A stretch of DNA of 64,000 bases from Legionella busanensis. Lineage in GTDB: Bacteria > Pseudomonadota > Gammaproteobacteria > Legionellales > Legionellaceae. The notes beneath the pieces are model-generated. The model ran no database searches. It was given only the letters and a program-made list of their open reading frames with translations, and was not told the DNA's origin. The stretch lies in NCBI RefSeq assembly GCF_900461525.1, contig NZ_UGOD01000001.1:1953001-2017000 (forward strand). Direction: 5' to 3'. The position numbers and the translations under genes were made by a program. Below, piece by piece: positions 2,856-20,063 of the stretch; within the stretch, counting starts at the first letter, position 1, and every line of letters starts with the position of its first letter.

Positions 2856-3524
2856 ATGAAAAAAGGATTTTTTCTAGCTTGTGCTGCATGGCTCCTACCC
2901 TTGACCTCTTTTGCTGCTCAAACTGAAGTAGCTAAAAGTTGGAATACTGTAACTTTTAATATAAAGCACAATAACTACCGCTTTTATTTAGAGCCACAAT
3001 TACGTATTCAAGATGCACCAAATAAATTAGATCAAGTACTAAATAATGTAGGGTTAGGCTATCTTATTACTCCGACACTAACCTTATGGGCAGGAACAAC
3101 ATCACTGATTATTGGTTCATTATCTGATGAGATACCGCATAGTAGAGAGTTTAGAATTTGGCAGCAAATAAGCACATCACATAAAATTCAACAATACGAT
3201 TTACAATGGCGGACAAGGCTTGAAGAACGTAAACGAGAACACTTTTCTGATTTAAATTATCGTCTGCGCACTCGATTAACTGTTGAGCACCCTTTCTATA
3301 AAGTCTTTAGCGTAGTCTGGTATGATGAATTTTTTATCAATTTAAATAGACCTATTTGGATTACTAGCAAAAGGGCCGATCAAAATCGATTCTTTATTGG
3401 CATGGATTATCAAGCTACTAAAACTTGGACAGTAGGATTGGGCTATTTGAATCAATACATTTTTACTAAGCTACCTATAATAGGCCATGTTGCTTCACTT
3501 CATCTTAAGTGGGAAAATAATTAA
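2856..3524 (+). CDS. DUF2490-family outer membrane-like protein
   Basis: This is a 222-residue protein with a signal peptide (MKKGFFLACAAWLLPLTSFA, cleavage near residues 20-22). The mature part alternates hydrophobic and polar residues in short amphipathic strands, with repeated aromatics (YRFYLEPQLRIQD, RTRLEERKR, YRLRTRLTVEHPF). This matches DUF2490 proteins, predicted outer membrane beta-barrels of unknown function. It ends in WENN rather than a classical terminal Phe. It is a single gene, convergent with phzF (15 bases between stops). Confidence 0.8.
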   Translation: MKKGFFLACAAWLLPLTSFAAQTEVAKSWNTVTFNIKHNNYRFYLEPQLRIQDAPNKLDQVLNNVGLGYLITPTLTLWAGTTSLIIGSLSDEIPHSREFRIWQQISTSHKIQQYDLQWRTRLEERKREHFSDLNYRLRTRLTVEHPFYKVFSVVWYDEFFINLNRPIWITSKRADQNRFFIGMDYQATKTWTVGLGYLNQYIFTKLPIIGHVASLHLKWENN

Positions 3525-3539
3525 GCAAAAAAATCTGTC

Positions 3540-4325: not shown

Positions 4326-4340
4326 GACTGACCTCTAAAA

Positions 4341-4489
4341 TTGAACTTTAGAGTTCTAACTTAACTTGTAAATTTTACTTTAGCGTAAATCATAAATATT
4401 TCAACAAGAAGCGGAGTTTGTATAGCGTGGGAGCACCGCTGCACTAAAGTAAAGAGACAAGTTAGACAAGAACTCTTTTAAAGAATGAG
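4341..4489. repeat. long imperfect inverted repeat (hairpin element)
   Basis: The arms at about 4350-4383 and 4444-4476 match with few mismatches (shared blocks AGAGTTCT, TAACTTGT and TTTACTTTAG) and weaker pairing extends outward to 4341 and 4489. An inner stem, AGCGG at 4410-4414 with CCGCT at 4436-4440, closes the loop. Size and shape fit a small non-autonomous mobile element or a structured RNA. I saw no target-site duplication. Confidence 0.55.
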
Positions 4490-4492
4490 GGT

Positions 4493-4609
4493 GAAGATTA
4501 CCTATCTCAACTTAAATTATCAAGTTCATTAAAAAATAAAACAAGAGAAATGATAGATAACTATTATGTCAAAGAATTAAATAAATTTTTTAAAATAGAA
4601 TTCTCTTAA
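4493..4609 (+). pseudogene. C-terminal remnant of a coding sequence, perhaps a sulfotransferase
   Basis: An open frame without a usable start reads EDYLSQLKLSSSLKNKTREM and then IDNYYVKELNKFFKIEFS before TAA at 4607-4609. The frame is closed upstream by TAG inside the inverted repeat. The pattern (helix, KTRE, YY, KEL, KFF) resembles C-terminal ends of sulfotransferase-like proteins, but the match is from memory and weak. The neighbouring hairpin element may have disrupted the original gene. The rest of the 4326-4680 spacer shows nothing else. Confidence 0.35.
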
Positions 4610-4680
4610 AATGCGTTGCAAGGCGCTATTTAGTCTCAAGTTGTAATAGATTTTACAACTAGACTTAATAAATAATTAAG

Positions 4681-5640
4681 CTATAAAGAATTACGATTTA
4701 CATTATTAATATATGTAAATTGTATACCCTTAACATAGCTCTGGTTTGCTTCTTTCTGAATTAAGGAATCAATTAATGTGCTTAATTCTATCATCTCTAT
4801 CTTAGAATTATTATGCTCTTTGCTTTCAACACTATGTCTTAAAAATGGCGAACATTTTTTTACAGTCTGCATAATTTTCTTATTTAAAATAGGTAAATCT
4901 AAACTCGACAGATCTTGAAATAGGCTCTTAAATAAACGTAATAACTCAATAAAATTGTCTTCCCGGGTCATAGAAAAAGGTTTTTTATCCTCTTTAAAAT
5001 CAGCATTATGTATTACATTAATAACTTGATTGTAAGCAGCTTGAAGTTGTTCTACTAATGCTTGTTCGAATTCTTTTTTTGAAAAAAGACTAGCTTGATA
5101 AGCCATATTTAGACAACCCTCTTGTCTATAATAGGTTATTAATTCTTTCTTAGTTGAGCGTTTTAAATTTAAAGAAGAAACCATTAATCTGAATTGATCA
5201 TGGAGATGGGCACTATTTATAATGTTTACAGCTTTATTTATATCAATACCACTGCTAAGTAACTCACAGGTCTTAAAAAAAAGTTTTTGTTTTTCTATAT
5301 CTTGGCTCATTCGAGAAATATCTTTAATTATGGCCTTTCTTACTGCTTCGCATAAATAGCCATCAGCTACCTCTTTAGCTGAAAAAAACCCGTAATGATA
5401 ACCCCAAGAAAAAGCTTCATTATTAATTAATTCATCAAGGACTGGTTTTAAAACTTGATAGATTATTTCTAATATATTTGTTTGAATAGGAAAATTAATT
5501 TCCATGGTAGGAAGCGTTAATTTTTTAGCTAAGTGGCCTACTTCTATAAGCTCATTTTCTTGGGTAGAAAAAGGCCTAGAGGGGTTTAATTGGCCCTCCC
5601 TTAATTGCTCGAGATACTGCGCCAATGTCCATATTTTCAT
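4681..5640 (-). CDS. hypothetical helical protein
   Basis: I do not recognise this 319-residue protein. It has no signal peptide and no membrane segment. It is rich in predicted helix, Lys, Glu and Leu, with short motifs EAFSWGYHYGFFSAKEVADG near residues 95-115 and repeated LxxLFxxL stretches in the second half. It reads as a soluble cytoplasmic protein or a secreted effector; the Lys/Asn-rich C-terminus gives no clear secretion signal. ATG at 5640 has only a weak upstream site (GGGAG 4-8 bases away, from the ctccc at 5647-5651). The downstream spacer is degraded, which suggests an accessory locus. Confidence 0.7.
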   Translation of the reverse strand: MKIWTLAQYLEQLREGQLNPSRPFSTQENELIEVGHLAKKLTLPTMEINFPIQTNILEIIYQVLKPVLDELINNEAFSWGYHYGFFSAKEVADGYLCEAVRKAIIKDISRMSQDIEKQKLFFKTCELLSSGIDINKAVNIINSAHLHDQFRLMVSSLNLKRSTKKELITYYRQEGCLNMAYQASLFSKKEFEQALVEQLQAAYNQVINVIHNADFKEDKKPFSMTREDNFIELLRLFKSLFQDLSSLDLPILNKKIMQTVKKCSPFLRHSVESKEHNNSKIEMIELSTLIDSLIQKEANQSYVKGIQFTYINNVNRNSL

Positions 5641-5759
5641 AATATACTCCCTTCATATCCTATCTTTAAAGTATAGAACATTGATTTTAGACGTTATAAA
5701 AGAACTGAATACAAAGGAAACTGATATAGATGGATTATTTTTGTTTAATTTTCAATAAC

Positions 5760-7769
5760 TTATTTTTTATCGCTTAAATTTGCTGAATGTTTTACTATAT
5801 CTTTAAGTAAAAATCGAGCCGGTGATAAAAAGCGAATAAACGAAGAAGGTAAAGCAAATGGTTGTCGAGTAATTAGAGCACTTAACCAATCAGCGCATAA
5901 TGGTATAGTTGTTAAACCTCGAGAACCAAAACCTGTAAACGCATATAAACCTTGATAGACATCACTGGTTATTGGTAACCATCGTTTTGGATCTTTAGCT
6001 AAGGGAGAAAAAAGGTCTTTAAAAACATACTCCTTAGGTATGGGCCCTACTATAGGAAAATAATCTGGCGTTGTAGTACGTACTCCCATCCAGTGGCCAA
6101 CAACCGCTTTAGATCTTTTGCAACTAGGCAATAAGATATTTAACTTAGCCAAATTTTTGTCATCTTCGGTGTGTAAATCCTCTAGATTTGTTTTATTCGG
6201 ATGATAAGTAGCACCAATAGCATGCTTATTATTTAAATTAGGTAAAATATGACCTTGGCCACAAATAGGGATAGCTAGTTTTGCTAACTCAGAATTAGTC
6301 TTAATAAAGGTAACCAGTCCACTTGTAGGTATAAGCGGCAAAAAAGAAGACTCATCAAATTGATTCGCTTGATAACCATTAGCAAGTATGACTGCATCTG
6401 CAGAAATCTCATTACAAAACCAGGTCTTATCATCGTAATATAAGGAATTAATTTCACAATTAGAGATATGATATATTTGCGAATCTGACAGTAACATTTT
6501 GCAAAGCTCTTTAGAGTTTATCCAACCAGATAAAGGTAAAAATAAAGCGTCATATGCCATTTCTAAATTGGCATATAATTTTACGTCTTCTGCAGAAATG
6601 AACTGTCCTAACTCAGGATAATGCGCAAAAATATGTGTATTAATTTTCTCTATTAATTTTTGCTCGTGACTATTATAAGCAAGCTGTAAAATACCTTTTA
6701 ATTCACCAATAGGATGACCTAATAAAGCTTGTTTGTAAAAGGAATAAGCATATAAATAAGCAGTTAACATAAACTGCGATATAGGCGATTGATAAGCGGA
6801 AAACTGAGGATATAAAATAGCTTGCGGATTGCCAGAGGCGCCACTTGCTAATTCTTCTTGATTATCGATTAAGAAAACCTCACACCCTTTTTTAGCCAAA
6901 AAATGTGCCATAGTACATCCTGCTAATCCGCCCCCAATTACTATTGCTTTACCTACATGTTCGATTTTAATTGGAGGCAGATACCAAGGTGTTTTTTTTA
7001 TCTTAAGAGATTGAGATACCTTATTAAATTGAGCATAAAAAATTTGTTCCTTATAATTTAAACAACTTTTCTTTTTAATTTTAAAACCGACATTTTGCAA
7101 AGCAGCTTGCACTTCTTTCGGCATCGCTATAGCAGTTAATGTGGCTTTAGGAGAAGATAAGAGCGCAATCTTAGTAAAAAATTCCTGACTTTTTAAAAGA
7201 TTATGAAAACTATATTTTTTAAGCAACCAAGCATCAATACTAAATTGCCTTAATTTATACTCTAAATCTTTTGTACCGCAAATAATTAATTCCTGAAGAT
7301 TGGAATCTAAATCGCCTAACATTAAAATTAAATTAATTCTACCTTGCTCAAAGCTTAGATAATGAAAACCTGGAGTTAAAATAGGATATTGCTCTACTAA
7401 TAAAGTTGCTTGCAATTCTAATTTTGGAAATACTTTTAAAATCCTAACTAAATCCTCTTTTTTTAAAGGCTCGCTCTCACACGAAAAATAATAAAGAGAT
7501 GCTTTTTCTGGCGCATATTTTAGCCAATTTTGCCAACTTAATAAGAAAGTTAAACCCGCTTTAAATTGGGTATCAGCTAAGGTGAAGTGATTATATTGAC
7601 TAGTGGGTTGTTGCCATTGTTTGATAAGTTTATTGCTGATAATACAAGCTTCTGTAAACTCTAACTGGGTATCAAAAGGCAAATAGAGATTATCGGTCGC
7701 GATGGAATAAGGCAAATCATCACCCCATTCCAATTCCATCGTTTTTACTGGACTAAATATATGGCTCAA
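5760..7769 (-). CDS. mnmC: MnmC tRNA wobble-uridine modification protein, degenerate methyltransferase half
   Basis: This 669-residue two-domain protein matches MnmC in length. The C-terminal FAD-dependent oxidoreductase domain (about 270-660) is intact in appearance, with GGGLAG at 279-284, SGASGNPQAILYPQ near 309-322 and GFGSRGLTT near the end; it would convert cmnm5U34 to nm5U34. The N-terminal domain should methylate nm5U to mnm5U, but its SAM motif (normally GFGTGLNFL) reads TQFKAGLTFL at 67-76. The normal DGFAP reads KKYSF at 184-188, so the catalytic Asp is Lys184. This half may be inactive. The start is TTG, chosen by family length; the next ATG is codon 11. It is 12 bases after the POT transporter gene, probably co-transcribed. 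Confidence 0.87.
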   Translation of the reverse strand: MSHIFSPVKTMELEWGDDLPYSIATDNLYLPFDTQLEFTEACIISNKLIKQWQQPTSQYNHFTLADTQFKAGLTFLLSWQNWLKYAPEKASLYYFSCESEPLKKEDLVRILKVFPKLELQATLLVEQYPILTPGFHYLSFEQGRINLILMLGDLDSNLQELIICGTKDLEYKLRQFSIDAWLLKKYSFHNLLKSQEFFTKIALLSSPKATLTAIAMPKEVQAALQNVGFKIKKKSCLNYKEQIFYAQFNKVSQSLKIKKTPWYLPPIKIEHVGKAIVIGGGLAGCTMAHFLAKKGCEVFLIDNQEELASGASGNPQAILYPQFSAYQSPISQFMLTAYLYAYSFYKQALLGHPIGELKGILQLAYNSHEQKLIEKINTHIFAHYPELGQFISAEDVKLYANLEMAYDALFLPLSGWINSKELCKMLLSDSQIYHISNCEINSLYYDDKTWFCNEISADAVILANGYQANQFDESSFLPLIPTSGLVTFIKTNSELAKLAIPICGQGHILPNLNNKHAIGATYHPNKTNLEDLHTEDDKNLAKLNILLPSCKRSKAVVGHWMGVRTTTPDYFPIVGPIPKEYVFKDLFSPLAKDPKRWLPITSDVYQGLYAFTGFGSRGLTTIPLCADWLSALITRQPFALPSSFIRFLSPARFLLKDIVKHSANLSDKK

Positions 7770-7781
7770 CTAAAACTCTAA

Positions 7782-9287
7782 CTAAGCAGCTATTAAAGAA
7801 ATATCATCTTTAGCGACTTGGCTTTTGTCATTCATCCATCTTTTTACAGTAGGTGATAAAAGGAATAAGGAAATACTTGCGGCAATTGCTATACAACCTA
7901 GAATTAAAAAGACATGACTATAACCAGCGTTCGTTATCAATGGGTTAACTGTATTATGGCCTACAGTCATCCAATTAGAACTATAACTTGATAAAGTTGC
8001 ACCTACACCAGTTGAAAGCATCCAAATACCCATCATTACACCTTGCAATGAACTTGGTGCTAAAGCACCAACCATAGCATAACCAATTGGAGAAATAAGT
8101 AATTCGCCAGCGCTTTGTAAAATAAAACTCATAACTATCCATTCTGGCCCTACTAATCCTTTATCATTGGCACTAGCAATACCTATAGGTAAAATAGCAA
8201 AGGCAGCACCAATTAAAAACAAGGCAAAAGCAAATTGCATTGGGATATTAATATAAATCCCACGGGCACGCATACGATTAAATAATAAGCTTAACAAAGG
8301 ACCACCTATAACAATACAAATGGTATTAATGTTTTGAAACCACTGTGGCGGAATAGTTAACATCAACCAATGGCGTTGTACATTGTGATCAATAAAATGA
8401 GTTAGACCCATTGGGCCAATTTGGTAAAGCATCCAAAAAACAATACCTATTATCATTAATATGCCAAATGCAAAGATTTTTTCGCGGGCTTCTTGCTCTG
8501 GTTGCTTAAATGCCAACCAATATATAACGCCAACCATGGCAATTCCGGTAAAAAGTACTAACTTATTAGCTAAATCTGCAAAATGCAGTAAAGGACTTAA
8601 AATGAAAGGAAGGCAACAAACCATTAGCAAGCCTTTTAAAGAAGAGCGAATTTGTTTACTTTTATCGAGCTGCGCATAAAGACTGTATTTATCGGCCAAA
8701 GCATGCCAGTAATATAAACAAATTAAGAGAGCCGCCAAATTACCAATACTGCTTAATAAAAATAAACGATGATAATTGTTTAATAATTGGAAATAACCAC
8801 TTAAACTAAAGCCAGCAAAAAAACCAATATTCATACCAGCATAATTATAAAGAAAAGCACTTTCGCGTCTTATATCTTCTGGCTTAAATCGCTGGGTTAG
8901 CATGCAATTTAGGCAAGTTACATTTAATCCAGCACCTGTTAAAAAAGCAGCCAATCCATAATATAAGTAATCTAATTTAACAAAAGCAAGTAACAAACAA
9001 CCTACAATTTGTGCTAACATTCCTACACAAAATAAAGCCCGATAAGATAAAAAGCGTCCGCCCCAATACCCACCTAATAGATGTAATGCAAAATTGAATG
9101 CTACAAAGACACCCATAATGCTATTAGCATATTGGGCTGCTAAGTGTAAAGGGCCGGTCATATAAAGAACTAAGGTTGAATATAAAACGCTAAAACTTAA
9201 GGTAGAGAAAATTTGAATACAAAAAAGTGCAAAAATACTTTGAGAAAAAAAACCACCCAGTGATTTATTGCTATCTTTCATGGACAT
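7782..9287 (-). CDS. POT-family (peptide) MFS transporter
   Basis: This 501-residue inner membrane protein has about 12-14 hydrophobic segments. The N-terminal half carries family-like motifs (GVFVAFNFALHLLGGYWGG near 60-78, and a following short loop with RFLSYR). Proton-dependent oligopeptide transporters import di- and tripeptides; in an amino-acid-using organism this is a plausible role, but the substrate cannot be read from sequence. The ATG at 9287 is followed closely by a second ATG two codons later. It is transcribed divergently from pta and lies just upstream of mnmC. Confidence 0.87.
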   Translation of the reverse strand: MSMKDSNKSLGGFFSQSIFALFCIQIFSTLSFSVLYSTLVLYMTGPLHLAAQYANSIMGVFVAFNFALHLLGGYWGGRFLSYRALFCVGMLAQIVGCLLLAFVKLDYLYYGLAAFLTGAGLNVTCLNCMLTQRFKPEDIRRESAFLYNYAGMNIGFFAGFSLSGYFQLLNNYHRLFLLSSIGNLAALLICLYYWHALADKYSLYAQLDKSKQIRSSLKGLLMVCCLPFILSPLLHFADLANKLVLFTGIAMVGVIYWLAFKQPEQEAREKIFAFGILMIIGIVFWMLYQIGPMGLTHFIDHNVQRHWLMLTIPPQWFQNINTICIVIGGPLLSLLFNRMRARGIYINIPMQFAFALFLIGAAFAILPIGIASANDKGLVGPEWIVMSFILQSAGELLISPIGYAMVGALAPSSLQGVMMGIWMLSTGVGATLSSYSSNWMTVGHNTVNPLITNAGYSHVFLILGCIAIAASISLFLLSPTVKRWMNDKSQVAKDDISLIAA

Positions 9288-9393
9288 TTAATATTTCCTC
9301 TAATTACCCTAATCTTTGACTATGCCATGCAATTTTTTAACTGTCTATGTTCACTTTCAAGGAAAACTCTAAACTGCATTATCTTTTAACAAT

Positions 9394-9423
9394 AAATATC
9401 ATTTTATTTACAAAATGATATTT
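9394..9423. promoter_or_regulatory. perfect 12-bp inverted repeat in the divergent POT/pta spacer
   Basis: AAATATCATTTT at 9394-9405 is followed by a 6-base loop and its exact complement at 9412-9423. It lies in the 291-base spacer between two divergent genes, 107 bases from the POT start and 156 bases from the pta start, so an operator is more likely than a terminator. The rest of the spacer is AT-rich; I could not assign promoters with confidence. Confidence 0.45.
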
Positions 9424-9578
9424 TTAACGCACATCGATATATTTTGAACAAAAAATTATCTATACTTCTTGCCAATAAAAAAAGTCTGAAGACAGCAACG
9501 ACATTTAGGTAAGTATAGTTATTCCCTAAATTTCTTTGACTTTCTGCTAAAGTATATTATGAATAAAAAGGTTACCAA

Positions 9579-11642
9579 ATGCATAGAAAAATTTATTTAT
9601 CAGGCATTGAAAAAAGGCCTGGAAAATCATTCATTTCATTAGGAATTGTCACTATTTTACAAAAGCATTATTTGCTGCACTGCGTCAAGTTATTTAAAGA
9701 ACTTGATAATAATCAAACCGCCCTATTACAAAGCTTAACACATCATTTTATATCGCCAACTATGTCTATTGATCAAGCTATTAATCTAATGCGTGAAGAA
9801 CCAGATATTTTATTTTCCACAATTTTTGAAATGATTAATGGGGACAAAGATTATGAAATCACTTATATAGAAGGAAGCGATTTTGAAAGCGATAATGATG
9901 TTTTTGAATACGAATTTAATTTAACGTTGGCGGCACAACTAAATTGTGAAGTTATTCTTACTATTTCAGCTAAAGATAGATCGTTAAATCATATGCTGTC
10001 TATTATTGCAACTGCACTAGAAATTAGTAAACGCAATCACGCCCAAGTTATTGGAATTATCGTTAATCGTGTGCCGCTTAAAGATGAATTTAAAGCTTAT
10101 GAGCTTTTTAAAAATCAATTTCCATTCTTAACATTTATTATCATTCCGGAATTTGAAAATTTAGCAAATCCCTCTATGCAAGAAATTGCTAATAAATTAA
10201 ATGCTATTGTCTTATGCGGGAAAGATGAGTTGCATCGTAGTGCGAAACAATTTACGGTCGCTGCTAAAACAATTGGTAATTTTCTTGAATCCAGGCTTAA
10301 ACGGGACGGTATGTTAATTATTACTCCTGATGATCGTATCGATATTTTATTAGGTTCATTGTTAGCCGATCAATCAAGCTCTTATCCAAAAATTGCAGGT
10401 ATTGTGCTCACAGGCGGTGAAATGCTCGGTAAAACAATACGAGAAATTATTTCTGGCTTAGAGCGCCCTTTTCCAGTCCTATTAACATCTCATCACACGT
10501 ACGAGACAGCCACTTCATTATTTACTGCTAAGTTTGGTCTAAGTAAAGATAATTCTACAAAAGTAAAAGCAGCCATTGATGCCATGGAAACTTATCTTTC
10601 TCCACCTATTTTAAAATTAATTAACCAAACTAAAAAAAGCTCAGATTTAACACCTGCAATTTTTTTGCATGAATTAGTTAATAAAGCACGCTCTAGTAAG
10701 CGTCATATTGTTTTACCAGAAGGAACTGACTCTCGGATTTTAATTGCGGCTGACTATCTTTTGAAACGTAATATAGTCAAAATTACTATACTCGGTAATA
10801 AAGAGAAAATTAAACTTCTAGAAAAAAGGATGCAGCTAGATTTAAGTCATGCCAAAATTATTGATGTTAACGAATCAGAAAAAAAAGTGAGCTATGCAAA
10901 ACAATATTGGCAGCTTCGGCAACATAAAAATGTAAATTTACCTATAGCACTTGAGCGAATGGCTGATGTTAACTATTTCGCTGCCATGATGGTTTATTGT
11001 GGTGATGCTGATGGTATGGTATCAGGTGCTGAACATACTACAGCCAGTACTGTTAGACCTGCTTTAGAAATTATAAAAACTAAGCCTGGTGTAACTAAAG
11101 TTTCCTCCATTTTTATAATGTGTTTACCTACCAGAGTCTTAATTTATGGTGATTGTGCAATAAACCCTGACCCAGATAGTCCAACGTTAGCTGAAATTAC
11201 CCTACAAGCTGTAGAGATTGCTAAACATCTAGGTATTGAGCCTAAGGCTGCACTTTTATCTTATTCCTCTGGCACGTCTGGAAGTGGCAAAAGCGTAGAT
11301 AAAGTTATTAAAGCAGTTGAGATTATTCATCGAGACTTCCCCGAAATATCTGTTGAAGGACCAATGCAATATGATGCTGCTGTAGATGATGAAGTAGCTG
11401 CGAAAAAGCTTCCCGGCTCAAAAATTGCAGGCAAAGCCAATGTGTTAATTTTTCCCGATTTAAATACAGGTAATAACACCTATAAAGCGGTACAACGAGA
11501 AACAGGCGCTCTAGCCATTGGTCCTATTTTATTAGGTTTAAATAAACCTGTTAATGACTTAAGCCGTGGTTGTACGCCACAAGATATAATCAATACTATT
11601 TTAGTTACAGCATTACAAGCAGAGGATAATCATGAGCATTAA
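9579..11642 (+). CDS. pta: phosphate acetyltransferase
   Basis: This 687-residue long-form Pta converts acetyl-CoA and phosphate to acetyl phosphate. The domain order is an N-terminal P-loop-like domain (1-200), a DRTGG domain (about 212-340) and the catalytic PTA_PTB domain (about 358-685), with HIVLPEGTD near 376-384 and SYSSGTSGSGKS near 565-580. The N-terminal nucleotide loop is atypical (GIEKRPGKSF instead of a PTGTxVG-type loop), so regulation by that domain may differ. AAAAGG lies 8 bases before the ATG. It overlaps ackA by 11 bases; together they form the acetate overflow/acetyl-phosphate operon. Confidence 0.95.
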   Translation: MHRKIYLSGIEKRPGKSFISLGIVTILQKHYLLHCVKLFKELDNNQTALLQSLTHHFISPTMSIDQAINLMREEPDILFSTIFEMINGDKDYEITYIEGSDFESDNDVFEYEFNLTLAAQLNCEVILTISAKDRSLNHMLSIIATALEISKRNHAQVIGIIVNRVPLKDEFKAYELFKNQFPFLTFIIIPEFENLANPSMQEIANKLNAIVLCGKDELHRSAKQFTVAAKTIGNFLESRLKRDGMLIITPDDRIDILLGSLLADQSSSYPKIAGIVLTGGEMLGKTIREIISGLERPFPVLLTSHHTYETATSLFTAKFGLSKDNSTKVKAAIDAMETYLSPPILKLINQTKKSSDLTPAIFLHELVNKARSSKRHIVLPEGTDSRILIAADYLLKRNIVKITILGNKEKIKLLEKRMQLDLSHAKIIDVNESEKKVSYAKQYWQLRQHKNVNLPIALERMADVNYFAAMMVYCGDADGMVSGAEHTTASTVRPALEIIKTKPGVTKVSSIFIMCLPTRVLIYGDCAINPDPDSPTLAEITLQAVEIAKHLGIEPKAALLSYSSGTSGSGKSVDKVIKAVEIIHRDFPEISVEGPMQYDAAVDDEVAAKKLPGSKIAGKANVLIFPDLNTGNNTYKAVQRETGALAIGPILLGLNKPVNDLSRGCTPQDIINTILVTALQAEDNHEH

Positions 11643-12840
11643 TCAGATAACTAACCAAGATTGTATTCTAACAATTAATGCTGGTAGTTCATCCATTAAA
11701 TACAAAGTATTTAGTCAACAAAACGATTATCAAATTATCCCTTTATTATCTGGACTCATTGAAGGCATTACTGAAGAATCAGGACTTTGGCATCATTATA
11801 CGAAGAAAAAAGAGCAGCGCGCTCATTATTTTGTTAATCATGAAGAAGCATTTGCTGCATTAGCTAAGCAGCTTCAACTCGATTTAGTTAATAAAAAAAT
11901 TGTTGGTGTTGGCCATCGAGTCGTTCATGGTGGACCCAATCTATGCCAACCAACAATTATAACGTCAAAGATATTGCAAGAAATTAAAGCCTTAGCAAAA
12001 TTAGCACCGCTACATAATCCTATCAATGCCGCAGGTATTGAATACGCTCAAACATACTTTAAAGAAGCAATACATGTGGCTATTTTTGATACAGGTTTTC
12101 ACCATAACATGCCTAAGCATATTCATTCTTATGCCATCGATGCTCGCCTAGCCCAACAACTTAATATTAGGCGCTATGGTTTTCATGGGATTAATCATGA
12201 ATATGTAAGTAATAAGGCGGCTAAATTTTTAAATAAACCTATGCCCGAGTGTAATTTTATTTCCTTACACTTGGGAAATGGGGCAAGTGCTTGTCTAATT
12301 AAAAATGGAAAATCCTTCGATACCTCAATGGGCATGACACCTTTAGCTGGATTAATAATGGGAACTCGTTGCGGCGATATTGATCCAGCCATTCCTATTT
12401 ATCTTCAAGAGCAAGGATTAGAGTTATCTACAGTCAATACTGTACTTAATAAGCAAAGTGGTCTAAAGGGAATTGCGAATAATAATGATATGCGAGCTGT
12501 TTTGGAAAATTATCATGCTGGCGATGAAGATGCTATTCTTGCTATAGAAATGTATGTTTATGCCATTCAAAAATTCATTGGCGCTTACCTAACTCAAATA
12601 AATAAGCTAAACGCTTTAATTTTTACTGGAGGCATAGGCGAAAACTCAGCTTTTATCCGCGCAAAAATTATATCTTCTCTAAAGCATTTAGGTTTTATTC
12701 TAGATAATGATTTAAATCAAAAAAATAAACAAAAAGAGTGTTCTGTAATATCAAAAGGCGAAGTACCTATTTTGATAATACCGAGCGATGAAGAAGGTTG
12801 GATAATGCAAAAAGTCTTTGAAAAACTAGACTGTAATTAA
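11632..12840 (+). CDS. ackA: acetate kinase
   Basis: This 402-residue enzyme interconverts acetyl phosphate plus ADP and acetate plus ATP. The ASKHA-fold signatures are present: TINAGSSSIKYKVF at the N-terminus, VGHRVVHGG near 97-105, GFHGINHEYVS, HLGNGASACLI, DTSMGMTPLAGLIMGTRCGDIDP, and TGGIGENS near the C-terminus. The length is normal for the family. The start lies inside pta, so expression should be coupled. No hairpin terminator was obvious in the 130 bases after it, which separate it from a convergent gene. Confidence 0.96.
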   Translation: MSINQITNQDCILTINAGSSSIKYKVFSQQNDYQIIPLLSGLIEGITEESGLWHHYTKKKEQRAHYFVNHEEAFAALAKQLQLDLVNKKIVGVGHRVVHGGPNLCQPTIITSKILQEIKALAKLAPLHNPINAAGIEYAQTYFKEAIHVAIFDTGFHHNMPKHIHSYAIDARLAQQLNIRRYGFHGINHEYVSNKAAKFLNKPMPECNFISLHLGNGASACLIKNGKSFDTSMGMTPLAGLIMGTRCGDIDPAIPIYLQEQGLELSTVNTVLNKQSGLKGIANNNDMRAVLENYHAGDEDAILAIEMYVYAIQKFIGAYLTQINKLNALIFTGGIGENSAFIRAKIISSLKHLGFILDNDLNQKNKQKECSVISKGEVPILIIPSDEEGWIMQKVFEKLDCN

Positions 12841-12970
12841 TACTTAGACTCATGCAAATAATATTAATACATTCGATTTTTCAGTTCCGTTGCTTTTACT
12901 AAAACTTATTTACACTACTAATTTCATTTTGGCAAAATTACTCAAACTTTTTAGCAAAAATAAGTTTAAA

Positions 12971-13789
12971 CTAATTATGCTCATTCTGGTAAGAATAACT
13001 TATATCTTCTTGAGGTGATTGAGATTCGCTAAGCGTTTGCGCTACAAAAAAGGTATTTCTTTGATTACTAGTATTAGAGTAAAAAGTCATTGACGTATTT
13101 TCTTGTTTTGTACTATTTATTAGCTTATATTCTGCAAGGAATTTATTACAATTTATTCGGATTAACTTCGATTTACTATCGATGTCCATATAGGTTTCTT
13201 GAACTAAGTTTTTTCTATAGTTGCCAGAAATACCTGGTTTACCGTTATTACTTTTAACATCACCAAGGCAAGCAACTAAATCCAACCCTTGCGGGAATTC
13301 TTTTTCTTCTTTACTAAAAGATTCTGCTAATTTTAAAATAAAATACTCAGCAAAACTCATTTGACCATATTTAAATCTTTCTTTGCTGCCCGTTATACTT
13401 AAACGCTCTGCTAAAGTTTTTTTATCACTTTCTATAGGAGGAAGACCTGATTTACAAGCATATAAGTTTAGTCTTTTAATAGTTGGGCAATGAATTAATA
13501 TATCTTTAAATTTTTCAATAAGAATATGGTTAGAGGTGTTATAAAAATGATACATAGTCATTGTATGTTCCATATAAACACCATGACCAACTTTAGTTAA
13601 AATTTTTGGATTTATTGGAAATAAATCCTCCTCATGATTACCAACTTTAATAATTTTAGCACCATTTTTTTCTCTTTTTTTAACCCAGTTTTCTTCAAAT
13701 TTATCTGCTTCCTCACTCATTAAAATTATTTCTTCTTCCATACCGTGGGTATTAATATCTTGTACTTGCGCATTATTTTTGGATGGCAT
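12971..13789 (-). CDS. hypothetical protein with a caspase-fold (C80/C11-like) His-Cys pattern
   Basis: I do not recognise this 272-residue protein by name. A hydrophobic strand ending in KVGHG (His69), followed 43 residues later by a second strand ending LNLYACKSG (Cys112), is the arrangement of catalytic His and Cys in clan CD peptidases such as clostripain, gingipain and the RTX autoprocessing C80 domain. A further strand LDLVACLGD (169-177) and NNGKPG follow. No signal peptide or membrane segment is seen. The N-terminus is acidic and the C-terminus is Ser/Gln/Asn/Glu-rich. It is a single gene with an AT-rich leader. The enzymatic assignment is an inference from the motif only. Confidence 0.72.
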   Translation of the reverse strand: MPSKNNAQVQDINTHGMEEEIILMSEEADKFEENWVKKREKNGAKIIKVGNHEEDLFPINPKILTKVGHGVYMEHTMTMYHFYNTSNHILIEKFKDILIHCPTIKRLNLYACKSGLPPIESDKKTLAERLSITGSKERFKYGQMSFAEYFILKLAESFSKEEKEFPQGLDLVACLGDVKSNNGKPGISGNYRKNLVQETYMDIDSKSKLIRINCNKFLAEYKLINSTKQENTSMTFYSNTSNQRNTFFVAQTLSESQSPQEDISYSYQNEHN

Positions 13790-13983
13790 AAATTTTTAAA
13801 TAAAATTGTTAAATAAGGGCCAGCATGATAACAACAAATAAGCAGATGATCAGCAAAAATTGCTAAAATTACCCACATATTATTAAATTAGCACCAATAA
13901 CGCATAAGTACACGCTTAGAGAATTTTTATTAAGAATAAAGCAATTGGCGCACTATTAATTAAGCGCCAACTGCTATGTTATT

Positions 13984-15150
13984 TTACTGCTGACTGACAC
14001 CGCTTAACTCAGCTGCCCAATAGGTAGCACCTGGTAGAGTATCCCACGGATTGGGCAATGCATCAGGTGTAATATAAACCCAACCGGCATGCCGTTGTTT
14101 AGTTAAACTTATAGCATTCGTTAAAGAACTATACGGTGTAGCATACAATAAATGCCAAAAACGAGAGGCAGGATATTTTGTTTCCCAGCCACTAGGACGC
14201 CAATTAAGATAAGCGTTATAGTTTGATTCAAAAGTGACTAAAATATCCGTCGTGTTAATGTAACATTCTGGTGTACTAGTACCAAAATTCACAATTGTAA
14301 TCGCCTTACCACCTTTGGCTTTTACATAGTTATTTAAATTTTGGTAATAGGTAAATTTGGTACAATTTTCAGAAAAACCTTCGTCAAAAAAAATACCATC
14401 AACTTGATACCAGTTATAATATCTATTGATATCAGCTCGAATAGCAGTAAGACTACGCTGACCATAGCTTGTATAAACATAACCTAATACTGATTGACCT
14501 GCGTTATGACTTCTTACCACTTGCGCTGCATAGGCAGGATCTTTTGTTGAACCAGGGCCATTAAATGGATTTATTAAAGCGATATTAGCAGTTGGTGCGC
14601 CTTTTATTAATTGGTCCCAGTAGCAATTGGCTGTCCCAGTACATGGATAAAAATAAGAAGGAACAGCAATCTTTTGTGAGGTATCATTACAATTTGAATT
14701 AGCAGGATAAGAAAGCGTCATTTTAGTCAGAGAAGATATACCCGCAGGTGATTCTACTTGATAAAGATAATCTAAGCTTCCTGCACAATTTTTATTAGGA
14801 AGGATATCTTCCCGTTGGATAACCCATGTTTTAACATTCCCTGAGGTTACAGAAACAGCTTTAACAGGCGTCCAATTCCAACCAGGTCCTACATATTTAT
14901 AAAGCGTTTGGTTCTCAATGAGGTAATTGGCCATTAATCCGCCTTGCGGAAAACCATTATCTCCTTTTGGTTGAACATCAATATAAACTCGATAAAAATC
15001 CTGCGTAGTGGTTACTTCATAAGAAAAGGTTATTACATTAGCATCTGCACTTGCCTTAGGATTAATAATTAAATTATCAGGCAAAGGCGATGACCATAAC
15101 GAACTAACATACAAAAACAGAAAAATTACACTGATTTTTTTTAAACTCAT
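13984..15150 (-). CDS. secreted spherulation-specific family 4 (spherulin-4-like) protein
   Basis: This 388-residue protein has a signal peptide (hydrophobic core VIFLFLYVSSLW, cleavage near residues 20-22). Residues 30-150 form a beta-rich N-terminal region. Residues 160-385 match the spherulin-4 family, a TIM-barrel group related to GH114-type glycosidases: AVPSYFYPCTG, NIALINPFNGPG, VLGYVYTSYG, and VDGIFFDEGF with Asp251 and Glu257 at a likely active site. Six cysteines in the mature part suggest disulfides and export from the cytoplasm. The substrate is unknown, possibly a galactosamine-containing polysaccharide by analogy. It is a single gene. Confidence 0.88.
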   Translation of the reverse strand: MSLKKISVIFLFLYVSSLWSSPLPDNLIINPKASADANVITFSYEVTTTQDFYRVYIDVQPKGDNGFPQGGLMANYLIENQTLYKYVGPGWNWTPVKAVSVTSGNVKTWVIQREDILPNKNCAGSLDYLYQVESPAGISSLTKMTLSYPANSNCNDTSQKIAVPSYFYPCTGTANCYWDQLIKGAPTANIALINPFNGPGSTKDPAYAAQVVRSHNAGQSVLGYVYTSYGQRSLTAIRADINRYYNWYQVDGIFFDEGFSENCTKFTYYQNLNNYVKAKGGKAITIVNFGTSTPECYINTTDILVTFESNYNAYLNWRPSGWETKYPASRFWHLLYATPYSSLTNAISLTKQRHAGWVYITPDALPNPWDTLPGATYWAAELSGVSQQ

Positions 15151-15276
15151 TTTATATCCTTATTTTGTTTTAAATTCCTTTAAAAAATAATTTTTTTAAA
15201 GTTTTTTTTAACCAAAAGATCAGTATAAATGAGGTAGGATGATTTACTAAAGAAATCTTTTAAAATTTAAAAAAAT

Positions 15277-15323
15277 AAAATTTATATCAAAGATAAAATT
15301 CACTTATTTTTGATATAAATTTT
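15277..15323 (-). terminator. AT-only hairpin downstream of hemL, probable terminator
   Basis: A perfect 15-bp inverted repeat (AAAATTTATATCAAA at 15277-15291 with its complement at 15309-15323) has a 17-base loop. It starts about 20 bases after the hemL stop and is followed on the minus strand by a T-rich run. The stem holds only one G:C pair, so efficiency is uncertain. Confidence 0.5.
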
Positions 15324-15343
15324 TTAATAATTTATTGATTAAA

Positions 15344-16633
15344 TTAATTTTTTTTTAAATCACTAAAAACTTTTTCTGCTGCTTCAATAGTTAATCGAAT
15401 TTCATCTTGCTTATGTGCACTAGATAAAAAGCCTGCTTCATACATAGACGGAGCAAAGTAAATTCCTCGTTCCAGCATCTTGTGATAGAAGCGCTTGAAT
15501 AAAGCTTCATCTGAAGCAGCAACATCTTGATAACTCCATACTTGTGAATTTTGCGTAAAGCAAAAACCAAACATGCCCCCTATGGATGCCTGACAAAAAG
15601 GGATAGAAAAAGCTTGTGCTAATTCAGCTAAGCTAGTCATTAATAATTGAGTATAGGAAGCTAATTGCTCATAAAATCCTGGTTTTTCTATTTCACTTAA
15701 CGTCGCTAATCCAGCTGCCATAGCTAAGGGATTTCCTGATAAAGTACCTGCCTGATACACGCTACCTTCAGGTGCTAAATAAGACATAATATCAGCACGA
15801 CCACCCACAGCACCTACAGGCATACCGCCCCCAATAACTTTCCCAAGCGTAGTTATATCAGGTGTCACATTATAAAGCGCTTGTGCGCCGCCTAATCCAA
15901 CCCTAAATCCAGTCATTACTTCATCAAAAATTAATAAAGTTTGATAAGTATCACATAATTTACGAAGCTCATTTAAAAAACCCAGCTTAGGTTGTACAAA
16001 ACCCATATTGCCTGCAATAGGTTCAATGATAATAGCAGCAATATCTTTAGGATACTGATCAAATAATGCTTCAACTTGCGCTAAGCTATTAAAATCAGCC
16101 GTTAAAGTATGTTCGGTAATACTTGGAGGAATACCAGGAGATGCGGGAATGCCCAATGTCAAAACTCCAGAGCCCGCTTTTACTAACAGACTATCATTAT
16201 GCCCATGATAGCAGCCATTAAACTTAATAATTTTATTTTTTTCCGTATAACCGCGCGCTAAACGGATAGCAGTCATCGTAGCCTCAGTACCAGAATTAAC
16301 CATCCTTATTTTTTCGATAGCAGGCATTAGGTGAATTATTTTTTGTGCTAATTTAATTTCAAGTTCAGTAGGAGCACCAAAACTCATACCTTGCTGTAAT
16401 ACCTCTTCCACTGCTTGAATAACCTTCGGATGACAGTGGCCTAAAATTAAAGGACCCCAAGAACCTACATAATCAATATACTGACGCTCATCAACATCCA
16501 CTAAGTAAGCGCCCTTGCCCTGTTTAAAAAAGACAGGATTTCCGCCTACGCCCTTAAAAGCACGTACTGGAGAATTTACACCTCCAGGAATTATAGATTG
16601 GGCTTGCGTGAATAACTGCTCAGATTTAATCAT
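15344..16633 (-). CDS. hemL: glutamate-1-semialdehyde 2,1-aminomutase
   Basis: This 429-residue PLP enzyme converts glutamate-1-semialdehyde to 5-aminolevulinate, the last step of the C5 route to haem. Signatures are [12 protein letters not shown] (15-26), [29 protein letters not shown] (113-128), [12 protein letters not shown] (233-244), and [10 protein letters not shown] with the PLP lysine Lys265. Length and all motifs are typical. It stands next to rubredoxin (divergent) and near hemJ, giving a loose haem neighbourhood. Confidence 0.97.
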
Positions 16634-16768
16634 TATGGCTTCCTTTAAACAAAATGCCCTCTATTTTACTTCATTTAAAGGCTCATAAGAAATACAAATT
16701 TATCATTTATCTTTACATTGAGAGTCTCTATCGGCAAAATTACTTTCTTTTTAAAGTTGAGATACAGA

Positions 16769-16945
16769 ATGCAAGATTATAAACGCTATATTTGTGTCAT
16801 TTGTGGTTTTATTTATGATGAAGCAGAAGGTTGGCCAGAAGATGGTATTGAACCAGGCACACGTTGGGAAGATGTACCAGAAAATTGGTTTTGCCCAGAT
16901 TGTGGCGCTGGTAAAGAGGATTTTGAAATGGTAGAAATAGAATAA
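16769..16945 (+). CDS. rubredoxin
   Basis: This 58-residue electron carrier has two CxxC pairs (CVIC and CPDC) that bind one iron, separated by the typical [26 protein letters not shown] stretch written here only as its ends: YDEAEG and PENWFCP. I chose ATG 16769 because family members start a few residues before YKRYICVIC; an in-frame upstream start at 16718 would add 17 residues with no family match. It is divergent from hemL and its stop is 2 bases from the convergent hemJ stop. Confidence 0.94.
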
Positions 16946-16947
16946 GC

Positions 16948-17370
16948 TTAGAAAGGCTTAGTCACTACTAGCAAAACAATACCAGTTAACAAAACCGTTG
17001 GGATCTCATTAAATATGCGAAAAAATACAACGGCTCTACAGTTAGAATCACTAGCAAAGCATCTTAGGAAATGTCCGCAACTTAAGTGATAGCACCATAC
17101 AATAATAACTAATGTAAGCTTGGCATGCATCCACGGTGCTTTTAAATAATAAGGATAATTAAAAGTAATAAGCCAGATTCCTAAAATAGTGGTTAATAAA
17201 GCAGCAGGCCAAGTAATTCCATAGTAAAGCCGGCGCTCCATCAACTTAAAGCGGGTATCACTTATTTTATCAGTTGTATCAGCATGATAAACAAATAAAC
17301 GTGGTAAATAGAATAAACCTGCAAACCAGGCAACCATGGCAATAATATGAAATGCTTTAATAACTAACAT
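16948..17370 (-). CDS. hemJ: protoporphyrinogen IX oxidase HemJ
   Basis: This 140-residue inner membrane protein has four hydrophobic segments. It matches HemJ (formerly UPF0093): KAFHIIAMVAWFAGLFYLPR at the N-terminus, RRLYYGITWPA, and the APWMHAKLTLV block. HemJ oxidises protoporphyrinogen IX to protoporphyrin IX in bacteria lacking HemG and HemY. The start ATG lies 2 bases after the stop of the upstream TerC gene (17373), so the two are probably co-transcribed. Confidence 0.93.
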   Translation of the reverse strand: MLVIKAFHIIAMVAWFAGLFYLPRLFVYHADTTDKISDTRFKLMERRLYYGITWPAALLTTILGIWLITFNYPYYLKAPWMHAKLTLVIIVWCYHLSCGHFLRCFASDSNCRAVVFFRIFNEIPTVLLTGIVLLVVTKPF

Positions 17371-17372
17371 AA

Positions 17373-18098
17373 CTACTTTTTCTTATTTTTTTGACGATTT
17401 TTTCGTGAGTGCTTAAGTAAGTTTAAACCTTCTACACTTAATGAAAAACCCATAGCGAAATAAATATAAGCCCGAGGAATATGGAATTTAAAGCTATCAG
17501 CTATTAAAACCATACCTATTAATATTAAAAAACTTAATGCTAGCATTTTTATAGTCGGATGTTTATCAATAAATCGACTTACGGGCTCACTAGCATAAAT
17601 CATCACTAAAATAGCACAGGTTATTGCTATTGCCATAACCCATAATCGAGTAGTTAAACCAATAGCGGTTAGAACACTATCAAGTGAAAAAACAATATCC
17701 ATAATACCGACTTGAATAACAACACTTCTAAACGTAACTAATTTCTTCTTTATCTCTCTAATTTCAACAATATCTTCATCTACTTCATGTCTTATTTCTT
17801 GTGTTGCTTTAACAATTAGAAAACCGCCTCCGGCAAATAAAAATATATCTCGAGCCGACAGAGCAAAATTACCAATTTCAATAAGGGGCGTTGTAAGTTT
17901 TACAAGCCATACTGCAGAAGCTAATAAAGCTAAGCGAGTCATCCAAGCAAAAGTAAGACCCCAACGTCTAGCACTACGACGTTGTTCAACTGGAAGTTTC
18001 TCGGTAAGTATCGATAAAAATACTAAGTTATCAATACCTAGAACAATTTCCAAAACAATTAGGGCGCTTAAACTTAATAATATATCTACAAATTCCAT
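17373..18098 (-). CDS. TerC/YgdQ-family membrane protein
   Basis: This 241-residue protein has seven predicted membrane segments. TerC signatures are LEIVLGIDNLVFLSIL near 16-31 and GIMDIVFSLDSVLTAIGL near 132-149, each with an acidic residue inside a membrane helix, and a Lys-rich cytoplasmic tail. TerC-family proteins have been linked to manganese export in some bacteria and to tellurium resistance in others; the role here is unproven. It lies two bases upstream of hemJ, in the same direction. The promoter should lie in the AT-rich spacer shared with pcnB. Confidence 0.9.
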   Translation of the reverse strand: MEFVDILLSLSALIVLEIVLGIDNLVFLSILTEKLPVEQRRSARRWGLTFAWMTRLALLASAVWLVKLTTPLIEIGNFALSARDIFLFAGGGFLIVKATQEIRHEVDEDIVEIREIKKKLVTFRSVVIQVGIMDIVFSLDSVLTAIGLTTRLWVMAIAITCAILVMIYASEPVSRFIDKHPTIKMLALSFLILIGMVLIADSFKFHIPRAYIYFAMGFSLSVEGLNLLKHSRKNRQKNKKK

Positions 18099-18279
18099 GT
18101 GTTGATCTCTGAATTAATTATCCATTAATTTCGCAATGGTAAAAGATTAACAATAACGCTATCTATATCTTTTATGCAATAAATTATTAATCTATAAAAA
18201 AATTCTAAAAGTTTTAAATTATTATAATTTTAGCTATAATGTGGTCCGTTATACCTATTAACTGTGAGTACTGGCAATA

Positions 18280-19617
18280 ATTAAATTAATTAAAAAGCTA
18301 TTACGTAAGTCTCGAGGCAAAAATACGCCTACAGTAGCTAATTATATAATTCCTCGTAATCAGCATAATATATCTAAGACTGATATTAGTACAAATGCGC
18401 TAAAAGTATTAAATCGTCTTAATAGTGCGGATTTTCAAGCCTATTTAGTTGGCGGAAGTGTAAGGGATTTACTATTGGGTAAATCACCTAAGGATTTTGA
18501 CGTTGCTACTAATGCTACGCCTAATGAGATTAAAGCTCTCTTTAGAAACAGCCGAATTATTGGTCGCCGTTTTAAATTAGTTCATATTATCTTTCACCGT
18601 GACATTATTGAAGTAGCTACCTTTCGCGGCAACAGTGAATTAGATAATAATCAAGTGCAATTAACCAATGAACGCGGTATGCTCATTCGTGATAATGTTT
18701 ATGGCACGATAGACGAGGATGCTTGGCGACGTGATTTTACAATCAATTCACTTTATTACAGTGTAAAAGATGCTGCAATTGTAGACTTTACTGGCGGTGT
18801 TAAAGACATTCACGATCAGACTTTACGTATTATTGGCAACCCAGAAATACGTTATCAAGAAGATCCAGTAAGAATGTTAAGAGCAATTCGCTTTAGCGCA
18901 AAACTTCATTTTAAACTTGCTCCTGAGACTGCTGAACCCTTAGAAAAACTTAGCTCGTTAATTTTGCACATTTCAAGTTCTCGTTTGTTTGATGAAATGA
19001 CCAAACTGTATCAATGCGGTGAATCAGAATCAGTACAACGTTTATTAATCCAATATGGCTTATTTCAACATCTATTCCCTCAGACATATGCCTTATTTGA
19101 TAGTTCTTATCCAGTAAAAGCTTTTTTAGGTGTTGCTTTAGAAAATACAGATGCACGCATTCGTGATAATAAACCCATTACGCCTGCTTTTTTATTTGCC
19201 GTATTACTTTGGTTTCCACTACTTAATCAGGCAGCCAATTATCAACGTGATGAACAATTACCGCCTTTACCCGCTTTAGAAAAGGCAATGTCTCAGGTTA
19301 TTGGTGAACAGAATAAAATTATTGGTATTCCGAAACGCTTTAGTCAAGTTATACGAGAAATTTGGCTATTACAATTTCGATTCCCTAAACGTTGGGGCGG
19401 TCGAGCAACTAATTTATTAAAACATCCTCGTTTTCGTGCTGCATATGATTTTTTATCGCTTAGAGCTTTAGCTGGCGATGAATCACTTGAATTAGCGCAG
19501 TGGTGGGCAGTTTTTCAAGAGACATCAGAAGAAGAGCAAACTCAAATGATTAGTAACCTTCCTACGCCGCCAGGGCGAAAATCAAGGCGTAGAAAAAAAC
19601 CACAAGCATCTTCATGA
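18280..19617 (+). CDS. pcnB: poly(A) polymerase I, probable ATT start
   Basis: PcnB adds 3' poly(A) tails to RNA and so promotes decay. The nucleotidyltransferase signature VGGSVRDLLLGKSPKDFDVATNATP, RRDFTINSLYY and RMLRAIRFSAK are all present, with a basic C-terminus. The reading frame is open and family-like well upstream of the first TTG (18475): it encodes YIIPRNQHNISKTDISTNAL, conserved in PcnB. Between the in-frame stop at 18265 and 18475 there is no ATG, GTG or TTG. ATT at 18280 (445 residues) fits best; ATA 18277 and CTG 18271 are alternatives. E. coli pcnB is known to start at AUU. It overlaps folK by 4 bases (ATGA). Confidence 0.93.
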   Translation: MKLIKKLLRKSRGKNTPTVANYIIPRNQHNISKTDISTNALKVLNRLNSADFQAYLVGGSVRDLLLGKSPKDFDVATNATPNEIKALFRNSRIIGRRFKLVHIIFHRDIIEVATFRGNSELDNNQVQLTNERGMLIRDNVYGTIDEDAWRRDFTINSLYYSVKDAAIVDFTGGVKDIHDQTLRIIGNPEIRYQEDPVRMLRAIRFSAKLHFKLAPETAEPLEKLSSLILHISSSRLFDEMTKLYQCGESESVQRLLIQYGLFQHLFPQTYALFDSSYPVKAFLGVALENTDARIRDNKPITPAFLFAVLLWFPLLNQAANYQRDEQLPPLPALEKAMSQVIGEQNKIIGIPKRFSQVIREIWLLQFRFPKRWGGRATNLLKHPRFRAAYDFLSLRALAGDESLELAQWWAVFQETSEEEQTQMISNLPTPPGRKSRRRKKPQASS

Positions 19618-20063
19618 TTAAATGTTATTTGGCTTTAGGTAGTAATTTAGCTTCACCTGAACGCCAACTTAGAATGGCGATCAAACGTTTACAAGCGCTA
19701 CCAAATAGTTATGTTATTAAGGTTGCTCCTTTTTATGCAAATGAAGCCTGGGGCAGAAAATCGCAACCCAAATTTTACAATACGGTTGTCGCTCTTTTAA
19801 CAACTCTGCCACCAGAAAAATTACTGATTGCATGTCAAGCAATAGAGAATAAACAAGGACGAGTTCGACGCGTTAAATGGGGCGCCAGAACCATAGATAT
19901 AGATATTTTACTCTATGATAAAAAAAATATTAAAAGGCCGTTTCTTACGGTCCCACATCCTTTTTTACTTTATAGGGATTTTGTTTTAAATCCTTTATTT
20001 AAAATTGCGCCCTTCGCCTGCTTACCAAATGGGCTACCCATTAGTAAAATTAAAAAAATCTAA
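19614..20063 (+). CDS. folK: 2-amino-4-hydroxy-6-hydroxymethyldihydropteridine pyrophosphokinase
   Basis: This 149-residue folate-pathway enzyme transfers pyrophosphate from ATP to the pterin. Motifs are YLALGSNLASPERQL at the N-terminus, SQPKFYNTVVALLT, and the family signature WGARTIDIDILLYD near residues 87-100. It is slightly shorter than E. coli FolK (159). Its ATG overlaps the pcnB stop, the classical pcnB-folK coupling. An all-AT 9-bp hairpin at 20080-20101 follows and could be a weak terminator. Confidence 0.95.
   Translation: MIKCYLALGSNLASPERQLRMAIKRLQALPNSYVIKVAPFYANEAWGRKSQPKFYNTVVALLTTLPPEKLLIACQAIENKQGRVRRVKWGARTIDIDILLYDKKNIKRPFLTVPHPFLLYRDFVLNPLFKIAPFACLPNGLPISKIKKI

What the first reader, a model, noticed from the sequence alone, without database searches (positions are those of the whole stretch)
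18259..18477. pcnB has no ATG/GTG/TTG start for the full-length protein; ATT is the likely initiator
The frame from 18268 encodes residues conserved in PcnB (IPRNQH, DISTNAL, AYLVGGSVRDLLLG), but between the in-frame stop at 18265 and 18475 no standard start exists. The TTG at 18475 would delete the nucleotidyltransferase Gly-Gly loop. E. coli pcnB is established to start at AUU, and infC also uses AUU, which makes it sensitive to IF3. The same unusual choice here suggests a conserved low-translation control of polyadenylation. TGAG 8-11 bases before ATA/ATT is the only candidate ribosome site.
Basis: partly seen in the sequence, partly recalled or inferred. Interest (0 to 1): 0.72.

Follow-up and report, generated by a model that had tools for sequence, protein, structure and literature searches.

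The report
pcnB with an isoleucine-codon start
A bacterial gene for the enzyme that adds poly(A) tails to RNA seems to begin at an isoleucine-type codon instead of ATG, GTG or TTG, and many relatives share this, as if evolution keeps the enzyme deliberately scarce.

Summary
In a genome close to Legionella gresilensis the pcnB frame opens after TGA 18265-18267 and has no ATG/GTG/TTG before TTG 18475, inside the catalytic domain. Close relatives share this, so a sequencing error is unlikely. Of 129 aligned pcnB loci of the family, 61 have no ATG/GTG/TTG at or upstream of the first two Ile codons. In genus g26 (43 genomes) differences before the first Ile codon mostly change the amino acid; from it on, all are synonymous for nine codons. 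That codon is ATC 81, ATA 31, ATT 12, ATG 2, other 3 of 129. The same method recovers ATT (30 of 30) in a second family with the E. coli-type leader. The ribosome site is weak and its register disputed. E. coli pcnB is already known to start at AUU. New, as far as my searches show, are the family-wide conservation, the drift among AUC/AUA/AUU, and GTGs that look like part of the ribosome site. Initiation and low expression remain untested.

The parts
18213..18240 (+). promoter-like pair TTTAAA / TATAAT (-10 box 18235-18240)
   Evidence: consensus match only: 1 found, shuffles gave a mean of 2.2; a TATAAT/TATACT box ends 33-36 nt before codon 0 in 86 of 129 family loci; 11 of 129 have none within 70 nt.
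18247..18276 (+). inferred short mRNA leader
   Evidence: Inference from the -10 box; no transcript data; no unusual folding (z -0.60 and -0.83).
18265..18267 (+). in-frame TGA that closes the frame upstream
18264..18268 (+). weak Shine-Dalgarno-like GTGAG (core GAG 18266-18268)
   Evidence: best core anti-SD register -4.43 kcal/mol, gap 7 to 18277 (10 to 18280); with the full anti-SD a register at gap 12 scores better (-6.7); homologous G.GAG has no change on the tree in 43 g26 genomes.
18277..18279 (+). proposed start codon ATA of pcnB
   Evidence: Homologous to the first codon under coding selection in g26; ATG at this place in G016 and G017.
   Evidence: ATT in 11 of 11 genomes of the window genus; longer core ribosome-site gap.
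18277..19617 (+). pcnB, poly(A) polymerase I, 446 aa if started at ATA 18277
18451..18468 (+). GGSVRD nucleotidyltransferase motif, lost if translation began at TTG 18475
   Evidence: aligned with E. coli PAP I, 3aqm.
18475..18477 (+). first in-frame TTG; rejected as start
   Evidence: the homologous codon is TTG in 24 of 129 family loci.
19614..20063 (+). folK, overlaps the pcnB stop; ATG control gene
   Evidence: Named by the pcnB-folK order of E. coli and the LGSN motif (recalled).

Best explanation
pcnB of this Legionella is translated from a non-canonical isoleucine-type codon, most likely ATA at 18277, read by initiator tRNA so that residue 1 is still Met. A weak ribosome-binding GTGAG upstream (gap 7 in the core register) positions the codon. 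The third-position mismatch with the initiator tRNA makes initiation poor and open to rejection by IF3, which keeps poly(A) polymerase I scarce, as with AUU in E. coli. Shown here: no standard start; a coding-selection boundary at the homologous codon in relatives; a conserved upstream motif; ATH at that codon in 124 of 129 loci. Inferred: initiation at this codon in this strain, low yield, IF3 dependence, and selection against excess polyadenylation.
For:: no ATG/GTG/TTG in G000, G001 and G004 before the domain; in g26 (43 genomes) the synonymous share of differing codon pairs is 0.05, 0.21 and 0.06 at codons -3 to -1 and 1.00 at codons 0 to +8 (codon +5 invariant). (changes on a FastTree tree, 76 loci without GTG/ATG at -3): amino-acid changes per codon changes are 30/37 at -2 and 29/35 at -1, then 4/16 at 0 and 0/15 at +1. 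G-13, G-11, A-10 and G-9 have no change in g26. G016 and G017 have ATG exactly at codon 0; in G120 and G123 a TAA sits directly before ATC ATT, so no in-frame start lies upstream; infC, ATT in 30 of 30 family loci read, has gap 7-8 in 29 of 30; pcnB in g26 has core gap 7 to codon 0 in 41 of 43, the window 7; in the 53 loci with GTG/ATG at -3 the site before codon 0 is strong (mean -11.17) with gap 8 in 51, while sites before the GTG itself are weak (mean -4.88) and scattered; the boundary method in a second family finds ATT in 30 of 30 behind an invariant GAGGTGT. E. coli RefSeq annotates pcnB at ATT behind GAGGTGTACT.
Against: In the window clade (3 genomes) there is too little variation to place the boundary, so the codon is inferred from other genera. 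ATT 18280 is invariant in 11 of 11 genomes of the window genus, while 18277 is ATA in 10 and ATC in 1. The site is weak: with the full anti-SD the best register lies at gap 12 to codon 0 in the window and in 35 of 43 g26 loci. With the core anti-SD alone the GTG-type loci give gap 5 to codon 0, thus 8 to codon 1, in 41 of 53. In those 53 loci an in-frame GTG (51) or ATG (2) three codons upstream could be the start; the coding signal at codons -2 and -1 there is intermediate (15/29 and 10/16). Two g26 genomes have TTG and two ATG five codons upstream in frame. The 16S tail used is recalled. No protein, ribosome-profiling or expression data were available.
Confidence: 0.7

Rival explanations
1. 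Translation starts at ATT 18280: a true AUU start like E. coli pcnB and infC.
For: ATT in 11 of 11 genomes of the window genus. E. coli and 30 of 30 loci of a second family have ATT. Some loci of g2 and g14 have a ribosome-like site better placed for this codon (by eye). In GTG-type loci the core-only scan gives gap 8 to this codon in 41 of 53.
Against: The coding boundary in g26 includes the codon before it. In the window the core gap is 10 against 7; of 35 window ATG ORFs with a core site (first ATG taken, starts not verified) none has gap 10 and four have gap 7. Across the family the homologous codon is ATC 74, ATT 44, ATA 9, TTT 2 of 129.
Confidence: 0.2
2. Translation starts upstream of 18277 at another near-cognate codon (CTG 18271 or GTA 18268), the relic of an ancestral GTG start still used by most of the genus.
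For: 8 of 11 genomes of the window genus have GTG at the homologue of 18268. ATG stands there in G045 and G122. The coding signal between GTG and codon 0 is intermediate in GTG-type loci.
Against: The CTG is TCA in G001. The G before the GTG is invariant (53 of 53, no change on the tree), which a ribosome site explains and a start codon does not. AGGTGA persists with its GTG out of frame in G018, G113, G137, G120 and G123. Sites upstream of the GTG are weak and at scattered gaps.
Confidence: 0.07
3. Only a shorter protein is made, from TTG 18475.
For: It is the first standard start codon, and the mechanical ORF list uses it.
Against: It removes GGSVRD and the IPR.H region that aligns with E. 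coli PAP I from residue 27 of P0001. The DNA upstream of it evolves as coding sequence in relatives. The homologous codon is TTG in only 24 of 129 loci, and TTA in G001 and G004.
Confidence: 0.01
4. Sequencing error or pseudogene.
For: None found.
Against: Shared by G001, G004 and L148 and by 39 of 43 genomes of g26; open frame of 449 aa with a strong family score.
Confidence: 0.01

Closest known systems
E. coli pcnB AUU start (Binns and Masters 2002, Mol Microbiol 44:1287; not read, seen only as cited in passages of PMC9764084, PMC12779154, PMC13009471 and PMC1780047)
   Same: Same gene, non-canonical start for the full protein, ribosome site just upstream, Ile-type codon first.
   Different: The codon here is ATA (ATT is next to it). 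The site is GTGAG rather than GAGGTGT. In this family the third base drifts, while it is T in 30 of 30 loci of the E. coli-like family examined. No experiment here.
infC (IF3) AUU start
   Same: The window's own genome has infC opening with ATT behind GGAGG, gap 8; non-AUG start linked to IF3 (passage in PMC1780047).
   Different: infC is ATT in 30 of 30 family loci read, pcnB is not. infC autocontrol does not apply to pcnB.
S. aureus non-canonical starts: AUA of infC and ccpN, AUU of cvfC1 (PMC13009471, passages read)
   Same: Conserved AUA/AUU starts; for cvfC1 and ccpN shown to limit translation.
   Different: Those have extended ribosome sites; here the site is weak, and gene and phylum differ.

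Membership tests
TIGR01942 PcnB (poly(A) polymerase I) | score over the curated cut-off | tested here: met
   501.9 against 305.65 bits
TIGR01942 PcnB (poly(A) polymerase I) | similarity to solved E. coli PAP I over the catalytic region | tested here: met
   3aqm, residues 27-431 of P0001, E 8.1e-132
TIGR01942 PcnB (poly(A) polymerase I) | poly(A) rather than CCA addition | not testable with these tools
   A second match in the genome is far below the cut-off (84.6 bits); that it is the CCA enzyme is recalled, not tested
Non-AUG-limited pcnB (E. coli type) | no ATG/GTG/TTG for the full-length protein | tested here: met
Non-AUG-limited pcnB (E. coli type) | AUU as the initiator | tested here: inconclusive
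   ATA 18277 favoured, ATT 18280 possible
Non-AUG-limited pcnB (E. coli type) | ribosome site at productive distance | tested here: inconclusive
   weak GTGAG, core gap 7; the full anti-SD prefers gap 12
Non-AUG-limited pcnB (E. coli type) | expression rises when the codon is AUG; IF3 sensitivity | not testable with these tools
   needs bench work

The most novel reading that the evidence does not exclude
Avoidance of AUG at the pcnB start is an old, selected trait of Gammaproteobacteria. In Legionellaceae what is kept is 'any isoleucine codon, not AUG' (AUC, AUA and AUU interchange), so natural AUC and AUA initiation in one gene has persisted across a whole family as a way to cap polyadenylation. 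The GTG that gene callers would take as start in many of these genomes is part of the ribosome site.
Probability: 0.5. Interest if true: 0.65.

Novelty: new variant of a known kind. Interest (0 to 1): 0.5.

Why it matters
Natural AUC and AUA starts are rare in bacteria (recalled; no call measured it). A gene that keeps a poor start across a family, while the exact codon drifts, suggests selection on low initiation itself rather than on AUU. It gives a comparative test bed for how IF3 and start codons set enzyme dose in RNA decay, and it suggests that a caller limited to ATG/GTG/TTG would misplace the pcnB start in many of these genomes.

Tried and rejected
Rejected: TTG 18475 (loses GGSVRD; TTG in only 24 of 129 homologues); sequencing error (shared by relatives); CTG 18271 (TCA in G001); a 13-codon frame from the ATG that overlaps the -10 box (18239, stop ends at 18280; not conserved by eye and probably not transcribed). 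Leader folding gave nothing (z -0.60 and -0.83). The promoter scan is no better than shuffles.

Led nowhere: the order search returned the same 143 genomes as the family search; one search returned a single known genome. Searches listed no paper that holds both Legionella and pcnB with a start-codon term (library: open PMC only).

Rows dropped: of 143 family genomes, 133 had a match over the cut-off; 134 loci were read (G140 is cut off and was not taken; G049 below the cut-off was taken; G025 counts twice). Three without the core motif (G014, G033, G036) and two without the N-terminal motif (G055, G138) left 129. Class sample: 140 genomes, 133 over the cut-off (two of them of the window family), 90 loci read, 1 without core, 89 counted. 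Order of G250: 30 genomes, 28 with matches, 28 loci, 2 unread, 26 counted. Family of G285: 30 of 58 read (the best-scoring). infC: 30 of 56 matched genomes read (the best-scoring). Results against a simple ribosome-site reading: full anti-SD gap 12 in 38 of 129, core gap 5 in 41 of 53 GTG-type loci.

Full report
WHAT IS THERE. The window frame that encodes PcnB opens after TGA 18265-18267 and runs GTA CTG GCA ATA(18277) ATT(18280) AAA TTA ATT AAA AAG and on to the stop at 19617. No ATG, GTG or TTG occurs before TTG 18475. The frame is a full pcnB: 503.5 bits, open frame 449 aa, 501.9 bits to TIGR01942 with cut-off 305.65. It aligns with E. coli poly(A) polymerase I from residue 27 of P0001 (3aqm). 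The closest named genome found is Legionella gresilensis (97 percent); the window's own record is not named by the tools.

RELATIVES. The genome search family of the window has 143 genomes in 33 genera, 133 with a match over the cut-off. I read 134 upstream regions and could align 129 on the motif II.[LF]IKKLL. At the first Ile codon (codon 0; window 18277) the counts are ATC 81, ATA 31, ATT 12, ATG 2, other 3. At the second (window 18280): ATC 74, ATT 44, ATA 9, TTT 2. No ATG/GTG/TTG occurs at or upstream of the second Ile codon in 61 of 129, among them 39 of 43 genomes of genus g26 and 3 of 11 of the window genus. Among 46 named loci, 26 have none.

WHERE THE PROTEIN BEGINS. In g26 the synonymous share of differing codon pairs is 0.05, 0.21 and 0.06 at the three codons before codon 0, and 1.00 from codon 0 to +8 (codon +5 invariant). 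On a tree of the downstream DNA, 76 loci without GTG/ATG at codon -3 show amino-acid changes per codon changes of 30/37 at -2 and 29/35 at -1, then 4/16 at 0 and 0/15 at +1. Codon 0 is therefore the first codon under coding selection there. Two genomes (G016, G017) carry ATG exactly there, and two (G120, G123) have TAA directly before ATC ATT. In the window this codon is ATA 18277. The window clade itself (3 genomes) varies too little to show the boundary, and ATT 18280 is as conserved in the window genus (11 of 11) as 18277 (ATA 10, ATC 1).

THE RIBOSOME SITE. In g26 the bases G-13, G-11, A-10 and G-9 have no change on the tree. In the 53 loci with GTG (51) or ATG (2) at codon -3, GGTG is nearly fixed, including the G before the GTG (53 of 53). 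In five loci (G018, G113, G137, G120, G123) AGGTGA is kept with its GTG out of frame. In the 53 loci the full anti-SD site before codon 0 averages -11.17 kcal/mol with gap 8 in 51, while sites before the GTG average -4.88 at scattered gaps. I read AGGTGA as a ribosome site whose GTG is in frame by accident in many species. A GTG start is not excluded there: the coding signal between GTG and codon 0 is intermediate (15/29, 10/16), and G045 and G122 have ATG. The register is disputed. With the core anti-SD the gap to codon 0 is 7 in 41 of 43 g26 loci and in the window, but 5 in 41 of 53 GTG-type loci. With the full anti-SD it is 12 in 35 of 43 g26 loci and in the window. A -10 box ends 33-36 nt before codon 0 in 86 of 129.

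CONTROLS. infC of the window genome opens with ATT behind GGAGG. Of 56 family genomes with a match, 30 were read: ATT in 30, gap 7-8 in 29. In the 38 long loci folK has ATG in 38 and terC in 24 of 24 found, against 12 of 38 without a standard start in pcnB. The boundary method applied to a second, unnamed family with the E. coli-type leader (30 of 58 genomes read) gives ATT in 30 of 30, with GAGGTGT invariant, a variable codon -1, and an internal Ile codon that drifts (ATT 15, ATC 14, ATA 1); 10 of these 30 have an in-frame ATG/GTG/TTG 6-34 codons further upstream. E. coli K-12 itself is annotated at ATT behind GAGGTGTACT.

WIDER PICTURE. In a class-wide sample 11 of 89 pcnB loci have no standard start 30 or more codons upstream of the GG.VRD motif. 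In the order of G250, five of 26 readable loci carry a GAGGTGT site followed by ATT TTT, and two have no standard start 34 or more codons upstream of the motif. The other loci of both samples have at least one such codon, and in many it is an ATG. The rate in other genes of these genomes was not measured.

KNOWN AND NEW. The AUU start of E. coli pcnB is in print (Binns and Masters 2002, seen only as cited; PMC9764084 passage: AUU and a poor ribosome site keep PAP I low). AUA and AUU starts that limit translation are described in S. aureus (PMC13009471, passages). Paper searches listed no title on this family's pcnB (listings and abstract starts seen; passages of some); one search had no hit. 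New, to that extent: the conservation in this family, the drift among AUC/AUA/AUU, and ATA as the likely start in the window.

MECHANISM. Shown: no standard start, coding boundary in relatives, conserved upstream motif, ATH kept. Inferred: initiator tRNA reads AUA with a third-base mismatch, IF3 disfavours it, PAP I stays scarce, and selection keeps it so because excess polyadenylation speeds RNA decay.

Noticed in passing
L146 (infC of the window genome) and L284-L312: infC starts at ATT in 30 of 30 family loci read, with a ribosome site 7-8 nt upstream in 29.
   Followed up: yes
G137:C24:18541-19536, G125:C12:5410-6399, G131:C21:61582-62406, G122 (three places), G124:C1:1772587-1773483: Several genomes of genus g31 hold extra PcnB-like domains (110-211 bits) inside open frames of 922-1032 aa; role unknown.
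   Followed up: no
G115 and G116 (0.5 Mb genomes): Two very small genomes of the family show no pcnB over the cut-off, only one weak match each; infC is present.
   Followed up: no
L204, L221, L222, L234, L239, L253, L258, L260, L262, L271, L278: Eleven other gammaproteobacterial pcnB loci without a standard start in the N-terminal region; L239 has GGAGGTGCACG-ATT.
   Followed up: partly
window 18239-18280: A 13-codon frame starts at the ATG that overlaps the -10 box and ends in a TAA that overlaps ATA/ATT; not conserved by eye.
   Followed up: partly
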